In this document: piece by piece, positions 10,811-61,160 of the stretch
Layout of the letters: every line of letters starts with the position of its first letter
How positions within the stretch are numbered: position 1 is the stretch's first letter
NCBI GenBank assembly: GCA_004369045.1
Contig: ML213510.1
Coordinates: 880,736 to 944,735 of the forward strand
Direction: 5' to 3'
Source: Heliocybe sulcata
Taxonomy: Eukaryota; Basidiomycota; Agaricomycetes; Gloeophyllales; Gloeophyllaceae
Length of the DNA: 64,000 nt
Notes under the pieces: model-generated
Seen by the model: the letters and a program-made list of their open reading frames with translations, nothing else
Databases searched by the model: none
What the model was told of the DNA's origin: nothing
Program-made: the position numbers and the translations under genes

Positions 10811-12451
10811 TCACAGGCGACGGAAGCGCCGAAACTGCTCGTCCTGGTCAAGAATAGGCCATAGTGGCTCGCTCAGTGCTAGGGCGATATCAACAGAACC
10901 CTTGTCACGCAACTGCGAGTCTGCGGGCTGCACCTGCTCCTCGGTGGCAAGAAGGTAGAACAAGCCGTCGATAAGCGAGATCGGCGTGAACGGCTGCGAT
11001 ACGAGCGCCGGCGCGACGTCCAACACAGCTCCTGCGTACATGTCGAACTTGCACCACTGGCTGATCATGGTGCAGCCGTATCCGTAGCGCAAGCGCAGTT
11101 GTATACGGTTCTTGTCAGGCTGCGCCGCGATCCATCGAGCTATTTGTTCCGCCTCTTGCTGAGATGATGCACGAACCAGGTCGTGCATGGCCTTTGCGAC
11201 CTTCCAGAGCGGCCCATCAGCCAGCATTTCGTGCGAGAGGGTGGTGCAGTAGCTGCTGAGAGCGTTAGGAAAGTAACGCGGTGGTAGATTGAGGCGGGTT
11301 GGGTCGCGTATGTTGACTGGCGTGAGGAAGTCGCGAATGATCTCGGATGCGGCTGCCGATGGTGACATTCCTTGGGATATGCGCAGCTGAAGTCGCGCGC
11401 GGTAGACGGACTGATACAAGTGCGCTGACAGTGCTTCGAAAGTGGACACCCAGCCTCCTGCGTCAGACGGAGTGGCATGGGCTTTGAGCGCGTCGAGCTC
11501 GCGACCGGAGAAGCGCACAATACGCCCGACGACCGGAGGCGGAGGCGGGAGGGCAGTCGGCGCGGGTATCAATGCTGCCATCGCGTCCTCAGGGCTGGGC
11601 CCGACATCGTATAGCGACGGTTGGAACTCGAGCGCCGACTGCCGTTCAGCCTCCGTCATAGGTTCCGACAAGTAGGACTGGAAGTGGGGAGGGCTATCCA
11701 GAGCTGCCACACCCGTTCCCGGACTTGTGTCTGCCTCGGATTCAGATGCGCGCAAGCTGCGATACAGCTCTGCCAGATCGCGCACGAGCTGGAAGAAGCC
11801 ATCCGCGTCGCATATGGTGTGGAGTATACGAAAGCCGAGTGCGATGCTTCCGCAGGCAAATCGTGTGTGCTGGATGGAGAAGACGGGGTGGTTGCAGACG
11901 CCTTCCACTGTCGAGTCGAAAGGCGCCAGCAGGGCTTGCCCGCCGTCGGGCAAGTCCGTTATCACGATGCGGCTCTGGGTGCATGGGCTGTCGTCGGGGG
12001 AAGAGTAGGACTCGTCCAGATGTGCGCTACATTCCGCAGTGAACAACACGGCACCTGTGCCCAGACGCTTGATCTCGCGGGTTCCATCCGCGTTGAGATG
12101 CAAGCGACCCGTCAGGTGCGGATAGTAATCGAGCAGAAGTGATCCAGCGCGCCGCAGCCGCTCCACGGGGATCAGTTCCCTCGAAAGTGCGGCTACGCTC
12201 GGGCTAGAGGTGGGTGTTTTGTAAACGTAAACCACTGCAATCGGTATATTGGGCGGCACCAGCTGATCTAGAGGGCCGAGCCTCACTGGAGACTCGAGCT
12301 CTGCTAGCGTCGTCTTGTTGGCGCATTGGAGGGTATGTCTTTCGGTAACTCTGACTCGGTGTGGCGCTGCAGCTGACTCTACGTGGGTGCTCATGGGCGG
12401 ACCTAGGAGAGGTTCGACAGGGAGAGATGTCTTGGGCGAGACTCGATGCAC
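10811..12451 (-). CDS. BAHD-like HXXXD acyltransferase, 546 aa, intronless
   Basis: This belongs to the transferase family (PF02458 type) that moves acyl groups from CoA thioesters to alcohols or amines, mostly in secondary metabolism; fungal trichothecene acetyltransferases are relatives. The catalytic motif is HTICD at residues 211-215, within RILHTICDADGF. The usual second motif DFGWG appears as FDMYAG near residue 470, so the structural motif is present in altered form. N-terminal hallmarks include LGPLDQLVPPNIPIAVVYVY and the SLLLDYYPHLTGRL stretch near residue 105. A second Met at residue 20 (MSTHVESAAAPHRV) could be the true start. The gene has no introns, unlike nearly every neighbour. 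The substrate cannot be read from the sequence. No other biosynthetic gene adjoins it. Confidence 0.85.
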   Translation of the reverse strand: MHRVSPKTSLPVEPLLGPPMSTHVESAAAPHRVRVTERHTLQCANKTTLAELESPVRLGPLDQLVPPNIPIAVVYVYKTPTSSPSVAALSRELIPVERLRRAGSLLLDYYPHLTGRLHLNADGTREIKRLGTGAVLFTAECSAHLDESYSSPDDSPCTQSRIVITDLPDGGQALLAPFDSTVEGVCNHPVFSIQHTRFACGSIALGFRILHTICDADGFFQLVRDLAELYRSLRASESEADTSPGTGVAALDSPPHFQSYLSEPMTEAERQSALEFQPSLYDVGPSPEDAMAALIPAPTALPPPPPVVGRIVRFSGRELDALKAHATPSDAGGWVSTFEALSAHLYQSVYRARLQLRISQGMSPSAAASEIIRDFLTPVNIRDPTRLNLPPRYFPNALSSYCTTLSHEMLADGPLWKVAKAMHDLVRASSQQEAEQIARWIAAQPDKNRIQLRLRYGYGCTMISQWCKFDMYAGAVLDVAPALVSQPFTPISLIDGLFYLLATEEQVQPADSQLRDKGSVDIALALSEPLWPILDQDEQFRRFRRL

Positions 12452-13428
12452 TTGGAGAGAGGCGGTTGTCTTATGGGATGTCGTGTATCAGCAGTCCTTT
12501 CTGCCCTGTTATACTATAAGTGATAGTGGCAGTCCTGATGTGCTTACTGTTCACGAGGTGCGGCTAGTCATCGTAGTCCGAATCGGCACCGCAGCTCGCG
12601 GAGATCTGATCCTTCGGCGCAGCCGTGAATGGTTACCAGAGGTATGTATCCGGCATATGCATGTTCACTTATACATAGATGATAGTCATGAATGTGCCTA
12701 GTCATGAATATTGTATCCTATAGACGAGGCCTAGACGAGGCCTGGCAAGCTGGCAAGCACCGAACTTTACTGAGATCTGATTGGCCGAGGGAGTTTGCCG
12801 TGGTAAGGATCAAAACAGTACTAGACGCTGACATGCAGTAGTGCCTCCGCCACTCTTCTCTTGGAAGCGCGCTAAAGGCCCGAGTTTCTCAACAGGGCAT
12901 TCAGTTCGAGCGACATGCATCTCGGAATAGCGAATTACTACTGCCACTCAACGTTCAACGTCCACCATGCACCGTCAACCGACGTTGAACTTTGTGGCAT
13001 CGGCAGATCCTAGATGCATCCTTCTGTGCCCGGCACCTGATAGGCTAACACGTCCCAGATTTCCCTGACGCTCCATCCGAAGACGTAGCTAGGCTGATAC
13101 TGAGTGGCCATGTATATATGAAGGTAGGAAGAACGAAGAAGCGCCGGTGGTGCCAGTGGTAAGTTTCGCACTGTTCTGAAGGTCATACTCAAAGGGTATA
13201 TATATGCCTTACATAGATACCTGCCTGATAAATTGCTAATCATTGTGCTGCTAGAATATCCTACAAAACGTCTCCTCTAAGCCATCGAGCTACCACGCGG
13301 AAGGAAAAACCAAGCGATACAAGTTGCAAGCATATCAAAACAACATAATGCACGCAAGAGTCCCGTGTCGTGTTACGTGAAGGGTCGTCGCCATAATGAT
13401 AAATAGAGGTGAGGACGAGAGCGTCCTT
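12452..13428. other. Intergenic
   Basis: This is the promoter side of the acyltransferase and the 3' flank of the ZIP transporter. I saw a direct doublet of GACGAGGCCT near 12723-12745 and no gene. Confidence 0.4.
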
Positions 13429-29011: not shown

Positions 29012-32000
29012 ATGTCCATTCCTTTGGCTTTCTTGAATACGTTGCCCGGACCCGCTAATGGGACCTCACTTGGGGACCAGTTAGCGGCGACGATCACAGA
29101 GCACGGTTCATATCGAACTCTTCTAGATTGCCTCTGCGACACGGAGAGCCCGGCATTATGGTCGCCAGATACGTCTCGCCCAGCTCTCCACCACCGCGAG
29201 CTGCATAAGTTCGTCTCGGACTTCGCGCTGCCGACATCAGGCCTACATCCGCATCTGGGTCCCAACGATAGGGTCATGGTAGTGCTGCCTACTAGCCCTG
29301 AGAATGCAGTGGCGCTTTTGGCTGTCGCAAGCTATCACACTTGTGCCCCGGTGAACTCGAGCTGCACGGCGGCCGAGTTGAGCGAGGACGCCAAGCGATT
29401 GAGGGCGAAGGCTGTCGTCGCTACTCCCGACGCCGCAGATCGTCTGGAGCTTAGGAAGTTGCGAGCTGAGCTGGGTTGCGAGGTCGTGTTCCTGCATGGA
29501 AGGGCGGTGGGCCCAGTGGGAATATTCGACATGTCTGTGATGGATGAGGGTGACGAGGACCGGAGCTGGGACGTGGTGGAGGAAAGGAAGCATACCCCTT
29601 CGAAGCTCCATGAGCTGCACGATTACTCCCTTGTCCTACATACCTCTGGGACAAGTGGTAAGAAGAAGGTAAGCGAACCTCCCCGTGTGCTGTTGGCGTG
29701 CAGTAACGCATTTCGCAGGTTGTCCCATACACGCTCAAGTCACTCATCGTCGGGACATGCGCGGTTATCAAATCGTGGGACCTGCAGTCGCGAGATGTGA
29801 ACAGTAAGCGCGATTCTTCTTGAGGTCGGTGCAGGTGCTGAGCCAGAATTTGATCCACTCGTCATCCAGTGAATATGATGCCGCTCTTCCATGTCGGTGG
29901 TATCATCCGCAATCTTTGGGCTCCTATGTTCTCCGGGGGCAGTGCAATCATGTGTGCGGGATTCGACTCTTCCGCATTTTGGAGTATAATCACGGAGCTT
30001 GGGGCGACATGGTCAGTATCTTTGAACGACGATGCTCCCCAGTGCTGACGCCGTATTATATCTTATTTGATTGACAGGTATTATGCGGCACCCACAATGC
30101 ACCACGCGATCCTGTCATCCAGGCCGGAAACTGTTGTTCCATCTCGGGACACTCGTATGCGGATGATCGCAAATGCTGCCGGCGGTCTCCTCCCTTCCCT
30201 TGCTGCTGAGCTGAAGGACACCTTTGGCGCTGTGATCCTGCCCTCGTACGGGATGACCGAGTGTATGCCCATCGCTTCACCTCCAACCACGTACCAACTC
30301 GACCGTCCCGGCTGTTCCGGCGTTGCGTGCGGACCATATTTGTCCATTCGTGACCCGTCCAACCTTGAGAGAGAGCTGGCTTCTGGTTCAACTGGGGCTG
30401 TCTGCGTCCGCGGCTTGCCTACATTCCAGGGTTACGAAGTCGATCCGGATGAGCCATTGGATACTTCCTCTTTCTCAAGCGAGGGGTGGTTCGACTCAGG
30501 AGACATGGGTTATATGGACGACGATGGCTACTTGTTCATAACAGGACGCTCTAAGGAGATCATCAATAAAGGTGGCGAGGTTATCTCCCCTTTCGAGATT
30601 GAGGAAGCTATCACGTCAGTTGCAAAGGGCGAGGTTCAGGCTACGCTTGCGTTTTCCGCGGAACACGACGTCCTCCAGGAAACGATTGCTGTTGTCATCG
30701 TACCAGTTGCAGGAAGACCTCGCATCAGCCTGAGCGAACTACAGGATCTCCTCAAGTCGAATCTGCACCCATCCAAATGGCCCTTTGCGGTGGTCTACAT
30801 GGATGACCTACCCAAGAACAACGCGGGCAAGCCCCTGCGGATCAAGCTCGCTCAGCGACTTGGCTTCGACTGCTTCACTGACGAGACCCCCGTCCTGATG
30901 CGTCACTTCGAAGCAACTGCTCCGGACAAGAACGTCCCTTTGTCAGAACCGATCCCCTGCGCGACGGTGTCTCTCGAGCTGTCCCTTGTCGAACAAGCCC
31001 TGCACGACATAATTGGTGTCTTGGAAGTGGCTCTTAGGGTCAAGAAGGACGGCATGCCCGAGGCGTTCGTGTCTGTCGCTCCCGACTCAGGGCTGCAAAG
31101 CGCAGACGTGCATGGCGCCCTCCTCGGAAAGGTCGATGGTTACTGTATCCCTAGCCCTCTGTATGTCCTATCCGAGGAACTAGCGAGAACGGCTGAGGGC
31201 GATGTGGACTTCGCCCACATGGAGGAAAAGATACAAAGACGGAATGCCTCTGCTCTGTCTAGTACGGCTCTTGTCGTGCGCGGTGCTATTTCCCGCCTCC
31301 TTAATATCGAGCCAGGTATCATAACCTACGACTCGGACTTCTTCCTCCTCGGCGGCAACTCGCTCATCCTCGGTCGACTCGCCCATCACTTGCGGAAGGA
31401 GACAGGTGTCGTCTTGCAAGTCTCTGCTATCTTCACAAACAGCACCGTGCGCGGCATCGCCGCCCTCATCGAAGAGGAAGAGGCAAACATGTCCAAGACG
31501 ACGCTCAACTCGGCCCAGGCATCTATCGCGGAGGAGAAAGGAGGGAGCTACGAGGACGGAGATACTGATGGCAGCAGCATCGACCTCGAGTCTCTTTCTT
31601 ACGGCAGTTCGCGAGGGCGACGGGGCCAAACGCACCCGGTCGCGCTCGTTATCCAGGCCCTGCCGCTTACGTTCTTCTACCCACTTAAGGCTGCCTGGAC
31701 ATGGACAGTCATCGTCTTCGTACTCTCCACATTCGGAAACTTCATTGATGCTGAATACTGGGTTCGCCTTGGATGCCTGCTCTGTGCGATCGTCGTCGCC
31801 AGGCTGTCGGCACGTGTGTTGTGTCCTATAGCAGCCATCTTGTTCAAATGGGTTGTTATTGGCAGGTACAAGCCGGGCACGTATCCAATGTGGGGTTCTT
31901 ACCATCTGCGGTGGTGGATTGTGAACCAGAGCCTGCGCATCGGCGGACGTGGGATCTTCTCCATGCATCCCTCCCTCGAGATTCTGTACTACCGGATGCT

Positions 32001-34143
32001 GGGCGCACGCATCGGGCGGGACGTGAAGATAGATAAGATGGCGAGGATGGGGGAGTACGACTTGCTCACTCTGCACAGTGGGTGCCGTGTTGACAAGGCG
32101 CTCGTCCGCGGCTTCTGCGTCGAACGTGACGGCTTTTTCCGCCTAGACAGGATCGTTATTGGAGAGGGAGCCGTGGTTAACACATATACGCAGATTGCTC
32201 CTGGCGCCCAGATACCGGCGGGAGCAGTCTACGGCCCTCATGCTTCGTCTCATGAGGAGGCAGCCGCGGACAGCAACGCCAACTACAACAGGACTATGAC
32301 GCGGAAGCCGCACTGGGCATTGCAGTGGTTCTTCTGCACGCCGGTGATTGTTGCCGTTAAATTTGCCTCCTACGTACCGTGGTTCGCTGCCCTATTTGCG
32401 CTTCTTTCCCAGTCTATCCATGCACCGGGGTTGAACTCACTCGAGCTTGTTATCTTGTGGTTCGCCTCTCCTCACCGCATCATGTGGCATGCCCTCGCTC
32501 GTGTTATCCGTGGTGTCTTCCCTCCTGTCATCCAGCTCGCGTTGGGGATTGCAGTGAAGCGCATCATGGGGTTAAATAAAGAGGGGCCCATGGAGACTGT
32601 CTCGCAATGGACACTCGCGCGACGACACATCAATCACTCACTTCTGTCTCAGCGTGACCTCAGAGGAGCATTCGATATATTGGGTACCCACTATGGCATG
32701 ACGTCTTGGGTTTTCCGAGCGATGGGCGCCAAGATTGGCCGTCGAGTATATTGGCCTGGGTCAGGCCTGTACTGTCCTGATCCGGAGCTGCTGGAGGTCG
32801 GGGATGACGTAGTATTCGGCTCGCGCTCAGAGCTCTTCACGTCGGATTGCCTGGGCTCGGAGAAGATAGTTATCAAGAGCGGGGCTATGATAGCCGACAG
32901 AGTCGTCTTACTGCCAGGAACAACGGTTGGACGGCGTACTGTTATGGGTTCCGGAGCGATGGGCAAACGGAATGGCAACTACCAGGACGGCTCCGTGTGG
33001 ATGGGCTGCGATCGGGGAGAGGCTGTCTGCTTCGGAAAGGGTAGCAAGGACGTCGGTGGCGACACCATTACTCCCTTTGGAAGGGCCTTCTACAAGCGCG
33101 AGGCATCATTCTTCGTTCTCCCGTATCCGATACTGCTCCTCATCAACCTGTTCACTGCAGCTGGATGCGCCGGGTTCTGGTCCATGGGTGCAATTGCTGT
33201 TACCCAGGCACTAAACCAGATGCGAATCCACTTACACCACATACGCCTGTTCGAGGACTCGTGGCATCGATTCTTTGTACTTTTCGGTCTGATCAGCGTC
33301 TTTTTCATCCTTGCGTTGAACATCCAGGCGTACTTGGCCTTGGCATGGGTTATCGTGACCAAATGGCTCGTCATCGGCAGGAGGAAGGAGGGGCAGTACG
33401 ACTGGGACAAGAGCAGTTATTGCCAGCGTTGGCAACTTCACCTGGGGCTCTCGCGCCTCCTAAACCGCAGCTACGGCAATGGAGGTGTCCTCGGGAATCT
33501 GACAGGTTCGGCGTACATGGTCTGGTTCTATAGAGCACTGGGCGCGACTATTGGGAAAGACGTCGCCATCTTTGCAGGTGGTCGGGTCGGCTTGATGACG
33601 GAACCAGATCTGCTTGAGCTCGGAGACCGCGTCAGCCTTGACGATTGCTCTGTTGTGGCGCATATCAACTCCCGCGGGAACTTCTCTCTGAATCATCTGA
33701 AGATCGCTGACTCGTGAGTTTCCGCTTGCCGCTTTGCCATGATCACTTGCTCATTTGTTGTTTGCAGATGTGCCATGCGATCTGGATCCCGACTGTTATC
33801 TGGAGCGTCCATGGAAGAGAGCTCGATGCTTCTGGAGCATACACTCTTGACTTCGGGCGAGATCGCCGAGAAGGACTGCGTCTACGCAGGATGGCCTGCG
33901 AAACCCATCGACTACTTCCGGCTGGCGAAGCTCTTGAAGTCGTCGATGAAGTATGGCCATAAGCACCTACCCAGCTACGGCGAGCTGAAGAAGCACCACT
34001 ACGAGCTGGAGAAAGAGAAGCAAAGGTTGGAGGAGATGCTAGTGAAGACGGACAAGATGATGGCGAGGGTGCGGCGAGGCATGGAAGATGTGAAGGTAGA
34101 GTCGCGCAGATCGAGAAGAGCTTCCGATCGCTCTCGTCGATGA
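29012..34143 (+). CDS. NRPS-like synthetase: adenylation, carrier and membrane beta-helix C-terminal region, 1631 aa
   Basis: The exons 29012-29668, 29719-29803, 29870-30011, 30078-33713 and 33768-34143 sum to exactly 1632 codons. Residues 1 to about 600 form an adenylation domain: P-loop LHTSGTSGKKKV, SYGMTEC, GWFDSGDMGYMDDDGY with FITGRSKEIINKGGEV, and the catalytic Lys in NNAGKPLRIKL. A carrier domain follows with FFLLGGNSLILGRL; the Ser near residue 720 takes phosphopantetheine. From about residue 820 there are pairs of membrane helices alternating with three hexapeptide-type beta-helix blocks (around LGARIGRDVKIDKMARMGEY, MGAKIGRRVYWPGSGLYCPD and LGATIGKDVAIFAGGRVGLM). This is the NRPS terminal-domain layout of epsilon-poly-L-lysine synthetase, which makes an isopeptide-linked homopolymer. 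There is no condensation or thioesterase domain. Residues from about 1575 form a coiled coil homologous to that of the iron GATA factor at 46.8 kb. The substrate is not readable by eye. Confidence 0.85.
33970..34110 (+). other. C-terminal coiled coil of the NRPS-like protein, shared with the GATA factor
   Basis: The encoded segment runs SYGELKKHHYELEKEKQRLE, then EMLVKTDKMMARVRRGMED. The GATA protein at 46.75-46.87 kb has [20 protein letters not shown], then [19 protein letters not shown]. Over half of the residues are identical without gaps, and the DNA is also visibly similar around GAAGACGGA and GATGATGG. A basic tail rich in Arg and Ser ends the NRPS-like protein. Confidence 0.85.
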
Positions 34144-34399: not shown

Positions 34400-36024
34400 C
34401 TAAGACAGTTTTGCGAAGCAAACCTCGTTTCGTCCCATGTCAAAAACCGTGTAAATATTCTGCAGGAATACGTCGCCCACGATCCAGAAGTCTACCAATC
34501 CTTAGTGCCTGAATCCACATCAGCGACTGAATAGAAACTTACCTGTTGCCGAAGGGCTAGCCACCAGTCCGCCTACGCAGCGATCCGACCCTGCAGACTC
34601 TCGCCCAAGGTTGAACGTCTGTGGAGAGATATTGAAGGTCGCACTGCCGAAGCTAAGACCCAACTTGGGGATGTTGTTGCATGGTACTAGTGGGTATTGT
34701 GTTAGCGGACCATCAGTGTCCATACAACGAGCAAACGCACCGGTGAAGAATCCCAAGCCGACCTCGAGGATTGCAGGCCTGGAACCTGGGATAGCGGCGT
34801 ATATCTCATCCACAGTCGCTTCATCGCCTACGACCAATGTTGTGCCCGTATCGATGATGGCGTGGATGGAGTTCGTCACTCGATTCCCGTTGACTTTGAC
34901 GTTGTCCATGACAGTCTGCCAGTAGCCCTATGCATAGACGAAGAGTGAGCTTATGCTGAGAGCAATAGTAAGTGGTACTACTTGTTGAGTAACCGGAATA
35001 CACGTAAGCCCGCCGGTGTAAAGGCTGCTATCAGACCCGCCAATGGTCAACTGCGAGCCCGATCTTGCAAGCTTGAAGGAAAAGACGGGCTGAGAGGTCT
35101 GGCCTTGTGCAACAAGTGATGAGAAGACTGGTGGAGCGTTATACTCAGAGATGCTCTGGTAGCCCATGCCCATCAGTCCGTCTGGGACGAAGTTCTCCTT
35201 CGAGAAGCCTGAGGAGTAAGTAGAGGCGGCGCCTAGTCTTTGTTGCTTAGCCTGAATATAGAGGTGACCTCGATGACGCTGAGAACACAGTCCTGAGCCA
35301 TGGAGGCACTTACGGTCAGGCCAGCGATGGTCACTGTGTCGTTATACTGCTCCCCGGAGACGGTGGACCCGTCCCCGTACGCCAGGCTGAAAGATTTATG
35401 CACGTCTGCTGATGTTGAGCTCGCATTTGCATTATAGACCTTATGGCCAGCGCAGTTGGTGTGGCAATCCGAACCAGGGAGGAACAGATCGCTGCTTCCC
35501 GTGTCGAAATCCACTGTATGTAGCGGAGGCGATGGTTAGAAGCTATATGGATATAGAAAACAAAATATACTGACCGGTGTACGTCTTCGGAGGCGTCCCT
35601 ATGCTAATCTGTCCATACCACAACTCTATGGAGGTCCGTAATCAGAACTGAATATACGGAACTGGATGGCGCCGCAAACCTTGGCTGTCGTCTGTCAAAT
35701 CAACAGAACTTGACTTGCGCTTTGATAGACCGTTGTTGCCCGCATCTAATGGATGCTTCATACCAGTATTCTTTTGGTATGCCATGAAGCCTCTCTGCGT
35801 CTTTCTACATGTCGCCCATCATTTAGGTACTTCAGTAGAAACGGGTTGTACTAGACTCACGCAGTCGAGTACGCCAGCTGCCGCCGCAGAGCATCGGCGT
35901 TAACTGTGCCATCTGAATTCATGATTGTGGACCGCTTCTGCAGCGGAATATGGGTGGCGGGGCTCGGTGCCGGACAGGCTGCCACTAGGAGCGGGAGGAG
36001 TGGGACGATGAAAGGCAAATACAT
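34400..36024 (-). CDS. Secreted aspartic protease (pepsin family A1, polyporopepsin-like)
   Basis: An extracellular acid endopeptidase. The start at 36024 encodes a signal peptide (MYLPFIVPLLPLLVAACPAP), followed by a propeptide (IPLQKRSTIMNSDGTVNADA, ALRRQLAY). The mature part has the first catalytic motif FDTGSSDLFLPGSDCHTNCA near 35500 and the flap region FSLAYGDGSTVSGEQYND with its Tyr. Next are GLMGMGYQSISEY and FSFKLARSGSQLTIGGSDSS, then the second catalytic motif HAIIDTGTTLVVGDEATVDE near 34840. A disulfide pair is likely (CMDTDG and VPCNN), and the end is FWIVGDVFLQNIYTVFDMGR through VCFAKLS. At least eight short introns interrupt it, so the inner exon borders are approximate. Both catalytic Asp residues are intact. 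It converges on the NRPS-like gene. Confidence 0.92.
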
Positions 36025-59093: not shown

Positions 59094-61160
59094 ATGCCAT
59101 CCCAGAACGTTACCAAGAAGACTTCAGTCCCAAGCCTCGACCACTCTTCGGGCTCTTTCCATCTGTACGATGCAGAACCCGAGTCCCAGCGGGGCGACAT
59201 CGTCGCGGATGCGACCCTCGGCGACGGAAAGAGCCCAGGTGTCAAGCGCGTCGAGGCCATCGCTTCCAGCTTCACCAGGCTCGATCTCGTAGTGTTATTC
59301 GGTGGTATCTTCCTTATCGCCTACGCCTACGGTCTTGGTACGTCGCCGTCATTCCTAGTGAATCCCACCGCTCAAACGACCTGTAGACCAGCAGACCCGC
59401 TCCGTCTACCAGACCTACGCCACCAACTCCTACTCGACCCACTCCCTTTTGTCCACTCTCAATGTCGTCAAGGCCGTCATCGCCGCCGCCGCTCAGCCGC
59501 CCATGTCCAAGGTGGCAGACATCTTCGGTCGGCTAGAGCTCATCTCGTTCTCAGTCCTCTTCTACGTCGTCGGTACTATCATCGAGGCGGCCTCAGATGA
59601 CGTTCAGACGTACGCGGGTGGACAGGTGCGAATCAGTAGACGGACTATTATCTCATCATACTCACGCCTGTCTCCGAAGGTTCTCTACCAAATTGGCATC
59701 ACCGGTATTCAGCTACTCATCGAAGTCTTGATTGCGGACATCACTTCCCTCCGGAACCGTGTCTTCTTCTCCTACATCCCCGCCCTCCCCTTCATCATCA
59801 ACACCTGGATATCTGGCAACGTCACCTCGACTGTAATGGCCCACTCGACGTGGCAATGGGGTAAGGCTCTCGTATGCCCGGCATGATCGTCCGCTAACCA
59901 AGCTCTCAGGCGTCGGCATGTGGACCATCATCGTCCCATTCACCGCGATACCTATCATCCTCTCCCTCTACCTCGGCCAACGCCGCGCCAGACGCGCCGG
60001 AAAACTCACCTCCATCCTCCCCACCGCGCGCGCCTCCCCTCTGCAGACCCTCATCCAGCTCTTCCACACCCTCGACCTCCTCGGCACCCTCCTCCTCGCC
60101 CTCTTCCTCTCGCTTATCCTTATCCCGCTCACCATCGCAGGCGGCACCTCCTCCCGCTGGGCACACGCCGACGTCATCGTCATGCTCGTCATCGGCTTCC
60201 TCCTCATCCCCGTCTTCATCCTCTGGGAGCTCAAGGGCGCGAGGCACCCCATCGTGCCCTTCGGCCTGCTCCGCGACCGCAGCATCCTCGCCGGGCTCTG
60301 GGTCGCCCTCAGCCTGAACCTGTGCTGGTACCTCCAGGGCGCGTACCTCTACACCCTCCTCCTCGTCTCCTTCGACGCCTCCGTCACCACCGCCACCCGC
60401 GTCACGTCCCTCTACTCCTTCTGCTCCGTCATCGCCGGCGTCCTCCTCGGCTTCGTCTTCCGCTACGTGCGGTACATCAAGTGGTTCGCGGTCGCGGGCA
60501 CGCTGTTCTTTATCATGGCGCTCGGGTTGATGGTGCGCTACCGCTCTGGCGAGCACGGCGGCCTGGCGGGATTGATCGGGGCGCAGGTCGCGCTGGGCGT
60601 CGCGGGCGGGTTCTTCCCGTACCCCGTCCAGGCGCTCGTGCAGGCTGCGACGAAGCACGAGCATGTTGCTGTCATCACCGCATTGTACCTGACGATGTAC
60701 CAGATTGGCAGTGCATTTGGCAGTACGTCCTTTCCGTCTCTTGCGTCCCTCCTGTTCACTAATTTTGCGACTGGCTTTAGACACGATTTCCGGTGCGATC
60801 TGGTCCAACACCCTCCCGTCCAAGCTCTCGGAGTACCTAGGCCCCATCAACGCGACGCTCGTCCCCTCGGCGTACAACGCCCCTTTGACGTTCATCCTCT
60901 CCTACCCCGTCGGCACGCCCGAGCGCACGGCTGTCGTCCGCGCGTACAACGAGACGCAGCGCTACCTGGCGATCACGGGCGTGTGTCTCGCGGTTCCGCT
61001 GTTCGTTGCGGCGTGTTGCCTGAGGAATCCAAGGTTGGGCGACTTGCAGGCGCTGCCTGAGGCGGAGAGGAATCTGGGTAGGAAGGATCGGGTGAGTGTG
61101 CGGGAGCATACTGTAGATGCGGATGCGGATGCGAAGGTGGATGAGAGTGCGTCAGCTTAA
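59094..61160 (+). CDS. MFS siderophore-iron transporter (SIT/ARN family)
   Basis: These 14-helix H+ symporters import ferric siderophores such as ferrichrome. The protein begins MPSQNVTKKTSVPSLDHSSG, then a cytosolic lead and the family-typical VKRVEAIASSFTRLDLVVLF helix 1. Further exons give STLNVVKAVIAAAAQPPMSK with VADIFGRLE (the MFS loop 2-3 motif), VLFYVVGTIIEAAS and TYAGGQVLYQIGITGIQLLI. Then come IADITSLRNRVFFSYIPALP, FIINTWISGNV and WQWGVGMWTIIVPF. The large exon from about 59911 carries the remaining helices, including SSRWAHADVIVMLVIGFLLI and LYTLLLVSFDASVTTATRV. The C-terminal part has NTISGAIWSNTLPSKLSEYL, and the acidic tail ends KVDESASA. About five introns interrupt it. Promoter sites predict repression by the GATA factor at 46.6-50.4 kb when iron is abundant. 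Confidence 0.93.

What the first reader, a model, noticed from the sequence alone, without database searches (positions are those of the whole stretch)
29012..34143. Basidiomycete enzyme with the architecture of an epsilon-poly-L-lysine (poly-amino-acid) synthetase
Seen: adenylation motifs, a carrier domain with GGNS, then paired membrane helices alternating with three beta-helix blocks, and no condensation or thioesterase domain. Established: this layout is that of bacterial Pls, which makes isopeptide-linked polylysine, and of a related synthetase reported from the endophyte Epichloe. Inference: the mushroom protein may make a poly- or oligo-amino-acid at a membrane. Such cationic polymers are antimicrobial, so this is a candidate undescribed product system.
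Basis: partly seen in the sequence, partly recalled or inferred. Interest (0 to 1): 0.8.

Follow-up and report, generated by a model that had tools for sequence, protein, structure and literature searches.

The report
Mushroom polymer-enzyme frame with acid-activating head
This fungal gene encodes a membrane enzyme built like the bacterial makers of antimicrobial polylysine, but its front part looks made to activate a plain organic acid rather than lysine, so it more likely makes an acid-based product such as a polyester than polylysine.

Summary
A five-exon gene (29012-34143, +) encodes 1,631 aa: adenylation (A) domain, carrier with GGNS, then three tandem blocks behind paired hydrophobic helices. 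The C-terminal 750 residues are homologous to the Pls/PosA polymerisation domain (hhalign 100%, E 9e-46, 651 columns).

The A domain's best solved relatives are oxalate- and malonyl-CoA ligases (7e-61), whereas a bacterial relative's A domain finds NRPS, Pls and PosA. The Asp and Glu that hold the two amines (PosA D217/E221, both essential, PMC10522769) are in 81 of 81 readable bacterial relatives and 35 of 35 in a second survey. The mushroom has His255 and no acidic residue in the code.

Best reading: it activates a non-amino carboxylic acid, loads it on the carrier and joins it at a membrane, probably into a polyester. The closest published match in domain list, size and chemistry is the Aureobasidium polymalate synthetase (5,049-bp gene, A-like/T/C-like, six TM, no TE). 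Product unknown.

The parts
29012..34143 (+). Whole gene, 5 exons, 1,631-aa A-PCP-Pls-like membrane synthetase
   Evidence: Splice model with GT-AG introns, one open frame; unspliced pieces found at the same place in the genome
29012..29668 (+). Exon 1, aa 1-219, N-terminal part of the adenylation domain including TSGTSGKKK
29719..29803 (+). Exon 2
29870..30011 (+). Exon 3; carries F254-H255-V-G-G, where amino-acid A domains have F-D
30078..33713 (+). Exon 4, aa 296-1506: rest of A domain, carrier, C1, C2 and part of C3
33768..34143 (+). Exon 5: end of C3, C-terminal tail, stop
29012..30873 (+). Adenylation domain (aa 1-560, introns inside), oxalate/malonyl-CoA-ligase type; catalytic Lys546
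   Evidence: Pfam AMP-binding 2e-43; PDB 6qjz 7.3e-61; code
30874..31275 (+). 134-aa stretch between A domain and carrier, no Pfam match; by eye like a worn second A-sub domain
   Evidence: protein 10 (no family at E 0.1); Lys546-Ser723 spacing 177 residues against 55-59 in 85 relatives; the A-sub likeness is inference
31276..31470 (+). Carrier (PCP) domain, aa 695-759, phosphopantetheine Ser723 in GGNS
   Evidence: Pfam PP-binding 4.5e-13; position
31639..32328 (+). Hydrophobic group 1 (816-877) and block C1 (885-1045)
   Evidence: 18 of 23 columns conserved in bacterial relatives kept
32329..33093 (+). Hydrophobic group 2 (1051-1122) and block C2 (1151-1300), Hexapep 1225-1255
   Evidence: 11 of 29 conserved columns kept
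33094..33927 (+). Hydrophobic group 3 (1306-1378) and block C3 (1386-1560; one intron inside), His1490 kept but the bacterial Q-x-H-x-x-E-D-x-x-(M/F)-K signature otherwise mostly lost
   Evidence: PDB hexapeptide transferase 3ixc 4e-05

Best explanation
A fungal NRPS-like membrane synthetase of the Pls/PosA build whose adenylation domain belongs to the carboxylic-acid ligases of oxalate/malonyl-CoA-ligase type. Mechanism: ATP and a carboxylic acid without an alpha-amine give an acyl-AMP (intact motifs shown; acid inferred). The acyl group moves to the phosphopantetheine on Ser723 (site shown). The membrane block of three hexapeptide-repeat domains then transfers it to an acceptor hydroxyl or amine (inferred from homology). 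Because this C-terminal block polymerises in the characterised homologs I know of, and because a fungal polymalate synthetase of similar described domains and size exists, the most likely product is a polyester of a small hydroxy-carboxylic acid such as malate.
For: A domain: the top 8 PDB matches are oxalate-CoA (3) or malonyl-CoA (5, two of them chimeras) ligases, E 7.3e-61 to 2.5e-33 (60 of 144 matches shown, none of the 60 named an NRPS amino-acid A domain); the control A domain from an Azospirillum relative finds NRPSs, PosA 8g95 at 1.3e-108 and Pls 7wew at 9.7e-84. Against its 87 architectural relatives the A domain reaches only E 2e-8 at 24% identity while the C-terminal part reaches 4e-40. 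Asp and Glu of the amine-binding pair: 81 of 81 readable relatives have both, mushroom neither; 35 of 35 in a survey of three phyla. C-terminal homology over 651 columns, three tandem blocks. A motifs, Lys546 and Ser723 present. PMC9210645 (passages): polymalate synthetase of A. melanogenum is a 5,049-bp NRPS-like gene with adenylation, thiolation and condensation domains, six TM and no thioesterase, forming malyl-AMP; PMC11905612 (section 31) calls it A-like/T/C-like and transmembrane. 5,049 bp is about 1,682 aa, against 1,631 here; PMC10522769 gives its two main fungal clusters of poly-amino-acid synthetases as under 1,500 (section 10).
Against: No sequence of the polymalate synthetase could be compared, and PMC9210645 says its six TM segments are in its N-terminal part, whereas here they are C-terminal; either the review or the parallel may be wrong. 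C2 and C3 have lost many columns conserved in bacteria (11 of 29 and 16 of 38 kept), including the Glu-Asp and Lys next to His1490, so the polymerising chemistry may be changed or lost. The P-loop reads SGTSGKKK where relatives have SG[ST]TGxPK. Two of three oxalate-binding residues as I recall them for Arabidopsis AAE3 (His214, Ser289, His319; recalled, not found) are not kept (H, A, P by the alignment), so oxalate itself is unlikely and the acid cannot be named. All NCBIfam acyl-CoA-ligase models it matches, best FadD7 at 4e-65, are far below their cut-offs. Similarity to dicarboxylate ligases may be ancestry rather than substrate.
Confidence: 0.46

Rival explanations
1. Single acyl transfer: the enzyme activates a small or aromatic acid and the membrane block attaches one acyl unit to an amine, hydroxyl, lipid or cell-surface acceptor, with no polymer.
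For: Hexapeptide-repeat blocks resemble acyltransferases (3ixc 4e-05; Hexapep). The polymerase signature around His1490 is mostly lost. In grass pea the oxalyl-CoA synthetase AAE3 works with a partner enzyme, BOS, to form one amide, beta-L-ODAP (PMC9935904, passages); that BOS is a BAHD transferase is recalled.
Against: The whole three-fold membrane domain is kept, and the characterised homologs that I know of polymerise.
Confidence: 0.35
2. Poly- or oligo-amino-acid synthetase with an unusual amine-binding pocket.
For: Layout and C-terminal homology; fungal poly-amino-acid synthetases exist, and PMC10522769 lists a homolog in Botryobasidium botryosum (section 10; that this is a basidiomycete is recalled).
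Against: No Asp235 or Glu239 equivalent and an acyl-CoA-ligase type A domain; D217A and E221A abolish PosA activity (PMC10522769, table passage). The Botryobasidium code begins D-I-E, unlike this one.
Confidence: 0.08
3. A decayed or non-catalytic relic.
For: C2 and C3 are diverged, the P-loop is unusual, and no obvious gene cluster surrounds it.
Against: One 1,631-aa frame with the other A motifs, Lys546 and Ser723 in place.
Confidence: 0.09

Closest known systems
Polymalate (PMA/PMLA) synthetase, Aureobasidium melanogenum ATCC 62921 (QHD40385.1)
   Same: By description: fungal, A-like + T + C-like, six transmembrane segments, no thioesterase, about 1,682 aa, acid activated as acyl-AMP (PMC9210645 passages, PMC11905612 section 31)
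   Different: PMC9210645 places the six TM segments in the N-terminal part; here they are C-terminal. Sequence not available; the original paper (Int J Biol Macromol 156:1053) did not appear in the searches. What I read does not say that its C-terminus is Pls-like or its A domain oxalate-ligase-like
Pls/PosA cationic homo-poly-amino-acid synthetases (S. albulus Pls, A. baumannii PosA; NCBIfam TIGR02353)
   Same: A-PCP then three membrane-helix pairs with three hexapeptide-repeat blocks; homology along the C-terminal domain
   Different: A domain of another lineage, no Asp/Glu amine pocket; TIGR02353 168 bits against a cut-off of 423, full-length bacterial matches in my searches; 177 residues between Lys546 and Ser723 against 55-59
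Oxalyl-CoA synthetases (AAE3/Pcs60; PDB 6qjz, 5ie0, 8aff) and malonyl-CoA synthetases
   Same: Closest solved relatives of the A domain
   Different: CoA ligases solved as single enzymes; here fused to a carrier and a membrane domain; oxalate-binding residues, as recalled, 1 of 3 kept
Epichloe epsilon-polylysine synthetase Epls
   Same: Fungal gene with the same layout
   Different: 51% identical to bacterial Pls and keeps the lysine pocket (PMC7179176)

Membership tests
Pls/PosA poly-amino-acid synthetase | C-terminal domain of three membrane-helix pairs and three tandem blocks, homologous to TIGR02353 | tested here: met
   but below the family's curated cut-off, and no structure was predicted
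Pls/PosA poly-amino-acid synthetase | Score above the NCBIfam equivalog-domain cut-off (423 bits) | tested here: not met
   168 bits
Pls/PosA poly-amino-acid synthetase | Asp binding the alpha-amine (Asp235; PosA D217) | tested here: not met
   His255; Asp in 81 of 81 readable relatives of 87 aligned
Pls/PosA poly-amino-acid synthetase | Glu binding the side-chain amine (PosA E221) | tested here: not met
   Ile259 or Arg261 depending on gap placement; Glu in 81 of 81
Pls/PosA poly-amino-acid synthetase | Makes an isopeptide-linked polymer | not testable with these tools
   needs the enzyme
Fungal polymalate synthetase | A-like, T, C-like, six transmembrane segments, no thioesterase, about 1.7 kaa | tested here: inconclusive
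   Domain list and size fit, but PMC9210645 puts the TM segments in the N-terminal part
Fungal polymalate synthetase | Sequence homology to QHD40385.1 | not testable with these tools
   no fungal protein collection on hand
Fungal polymalate synthetase | Activates malate | not testable with these tools
   needs the enzyme
Oxalyl-CoA synthetase | A-domain similarity | tested here: met
   6qjz 7.3e-61
Oxalyl-CoA synthetase | Oxalate-binding residues | tested here: inconclusive
   1 of 3 kept by the alignment; the residues are recalled, not from a call

The most novel reading that the evidence does not exclude
The Pls-type membrane domain is a general acyl polymerase, and fungi coupled it to an organic-acid ligase: this gene would be a mushroom polyester synthetase (polymalate-like or with a new monomer), the acid counterpart of polylysine synthetases, and would tie the fungal polymalate enzyme and the bacterial polylysine enzymes into one superfamily.
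Probability: 0.37. Interest if true: 0.7.

Novelty: new variant of a known kind. Interest (0 to 1): 0.5.

Why it matters
If right, a domain known to me only for making cationic antimicrobial poly-amino-acids also makes acid-based polymers, and the A domain decides which. It would give a concrete mushroom candidate for a biodegradable polyester enzyme and a direct test of how polymalate-type polymerisation works. It also warns that layout alone does not predict polylysine.

Tried and rejected
Rejected: a lysine or diamino-acid substrate (pocket). Looked for and not seen: an acyl-type A domain on a Pls frame in bacteria (0 of 81 and 0 of 35 readable; the two sets may share species, and one search was cut at E 1e-60 and at 1e-40, so members as diverged as this one could have been missed, above all). 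A biosynthetic gene cluster: 19 window ORF pieces, of a much larger number, given to Pfam show a mixture of helicase, endonuclease/GRF, VPS9, Opi1, GATA, aspartyl protease, MFS and a BAHD-type transferase about 16.5 kb upstream; 9 of the 19 had no family, and no cluster is evident. A second copy in the genome: besides this gene only one weak match (an exon-wise search, a lower bound; weak matches to this family are unspecific, 13 of 14 control genomes give some). Viral contigs gave no confirmed relative. No tRNA or Rfam match in the window.

No fungal protein collection was available, so distribution in fungi and comparison with Aureobasidium could not be tested. A search for poly-L-lysine synthetase with basidiomycete gave one paper, seen as a listing only; searches listed 3, 1 and 8 papers, none by title on an enzyme like this (of these, PMC10522769 and PMC2823734 were opened, the latter for passages). 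A basidiomycete/polymalate search listed 12 of 6,647; one of the 12 was opened for passages (on Aureobasidium products), the rest judged by title, including a Ganoderma paper that holds the term polymalic acid once and was not opened.

Dropped rows: plasmid locus L010 (wrong frame picked, unannotated) was left out of the pocket count; 8 of 40 plasmid records and 80 of 401 genome loci were fetched; 5 genome loci are cut before the pocket (including the best C-terminal match, L013) and L034 is masked there. Left out of the 35: L103 (same gene as L014, has the Asp), L104 (same as L034, masked), L105 and L142 (same as L013, cut) and L132 (C-terminal fragment). Early pattern searches were faulty and replaced. 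The output was cut in the middle.

Full report
What is there. The gene at 29012-34143 reads as complete: five exons, four GT-AG introns of 50-66 bp, 1,631 aa (a splice model, no transcript). Pfam gives AMP-binding, PP-binding and a hexapeptide repeat and no condensation or thioesterase domain. The C-terminal half has three strong hydrophobic groups at 816-877, 1051-1122 and 1306-1378, each followed by a block; the three blocks are copies of each other, with 0 of 500 shuffles reaching the score of any pair.

The C-terminal half is Pls-like. tblastn of residues 800-1565 against plasmids finds 40 records, the first at 23.7% identity over 96% of the query; of the 30 rows shown 12 have an annotated gene under the match, 9 of them named Pls/PosA family and 3 with other NRPS-type names. 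A genome scan confirms 401 relatives, of which the best 80 were kept. Profile comparison with 16 bacterial sequences gives probability 100%, E 9.2e-46 over 651 columns. It is a distant relative all the same: TIGR02353 gives 168 bits against a cut-off of 423, while full-length bacterial matches in my searches give 368-945 (cut at E 1e-3, 1e-60, 1e-40 and 1e-40). Of 97 columns conserved in at least 90% of 35 bacterial sequences, 50 are kept: 18 of 23 in C1, 11 of 29 in C2, 16 of 38 in C3, 5 of 7 in the membrane parts. In C3 the His of the bacterial Q-x-H-x-x-E-D motif is kept (His1490) but its neighbours mostly are not.

The front half is not. The best PDB relatives of residues 1-579 are three oxalate-CoA ligases (7.3e-61, 2.9e-55, 9.4e-48) followed by five malonyl-CoA ligases (60 of 144 matches shown). 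The same search with the A domain and carrier of an Azospirillum relative finds NRPS proteins, PosA and Pls. Of the NCBIfam models, three acyl-CoA-ligase models score best, ahead of TIGR02353, all below their cut-offs. Against 87 architectural relatives the A domain reaches E 2e-8, the C-terminal part 4e-40. Between the A-domain Lys546 and the carrier Ser723 lie 177 residues, against 55-59 in the 85 relatives where both align (2 others do not).

The pocket. PosA holds the alpha-amine with Asp217 and the side-chain amine with Glu221 (PMC10522769 section 8); both alanine mutants show no detectable activity (table passage). In my alignment of the mushroom with 7 plasmid and 80 genome relatives, 81 of the 87 can be read there and all 81 have the Asp and the Glu; 5 are truncated and 1 is masked. 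A further 35 of 35 from TIGR02353 searches over 398, 395 and 387 genomes also have both. The mushroom has H255-V-G-G-I-I-R: His in place of Asp, and Ile259 or Arg261 in place of Glu depending on where a two-residue gap is put. Its ten-residue code reads HVRYAASPIK in the MAFFT alignment, or HVIYINSPIK if I align by hand to recalled GrsA positions; neither has an acidic residue. An Arg at the Glu place would suit a second carboxylate, but this is suggestive only.

Catalytic competence. YGMTE, SGD, GR, Lys546 and Ser723 are present; the P-loop is present in an unusual form, SGTSGKKK (relatives SG[ST]TGxPK). Adenylation and loading look possible.

What it most likely does. A plain carboxylic acid is activated, loaded on the carrier and joined at a membrane. 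I found one published fungal enzyme of such a description: the polymalate synthetase of Aureobasidium melanogenum, a 5,049-bp NRPS-like gene with A-like, T and C-like domains, six transmembrane segments and no thioesterase, forming malyl-AMP (PMC9210645, passages; PMC11905612, section 31). Against the parallel, PMC9210645 says the six TM segments lie in the N-terminal part, while here they are C-terminal; it also says that deleting the gene did not affect growth and that restoring it recovered one third of the polymer. What I read does not say that the enzyme is Pls-like; that link is my inference. I rank a polyester first, a single acyl transfer second and a poly-amino-acid a distant third.

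Surroundings and uniqueness. This is the only strong family match found in the 31.6-Mb genome (an exon-wise search and a lower bound). The genome also holds a multimodular NRPS whose A domains read F-D, so amino-acid A domains are present in this organism. No cluster is evident among the 19 window pieces examined.

Verdict. Observation confirmed; polylysine reading contradicted by the pocket; architecture reading upheld by sequence, not by a fold. A new variant of the Pls/PosA build, possibly related to the fungal polymalate synthetase; that membership could not be tested here.

Noticed in passing
window 10814-12487 (-): 558-aa frame with a BAHD-type Transferase domain (PF02458, 2.7e-27), about 16.5 kb upstream of the synthetase.
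   Followed up: no
window 34523-34909 (-): Eukaryotic aspartyl protease fragment directly downstream and convergent (PF00026, 2.4e-11).
   Followed up: no
window 59837-61057 (+): MFS transporter frame resembling TRI12 efflux pumps.
   Followed up: no
window 30874-31275 (+): 134-aa stretch between A domain and carrier with no counterpart of that length in 85 relatives; by eye like a second A-sub domain, no Pfam match.
   Followed up: partly
L011 1471-7001: Skermanella plasmid: a diaminobutyrate transaminase gene (ectB) lies directly before the Pls/PosA gene, pointing to a poly-diaminobutyrate product.
   Followed up: no
L005, L012-L092: The bacteria nearest in the C-terminal domain often carry the codes DLEDIGSVVK or DLEDLGTVVK (54 of 81 readable), close to the D-L-E-D-I-G signature that PMC10522769 (section 10) singles out as unusual.
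   Followed up: partly
L100 (genome C5:355000-362500): A multimodular NRPS with ordinary F-D A domains in the same genome.
   Followed up: partly
L004 (genome C27:279442-279732): Weak TIGR02353 match in a 226-aa frame, probably an ordinary hexapeptide-repeat protein.
   Followed up: no
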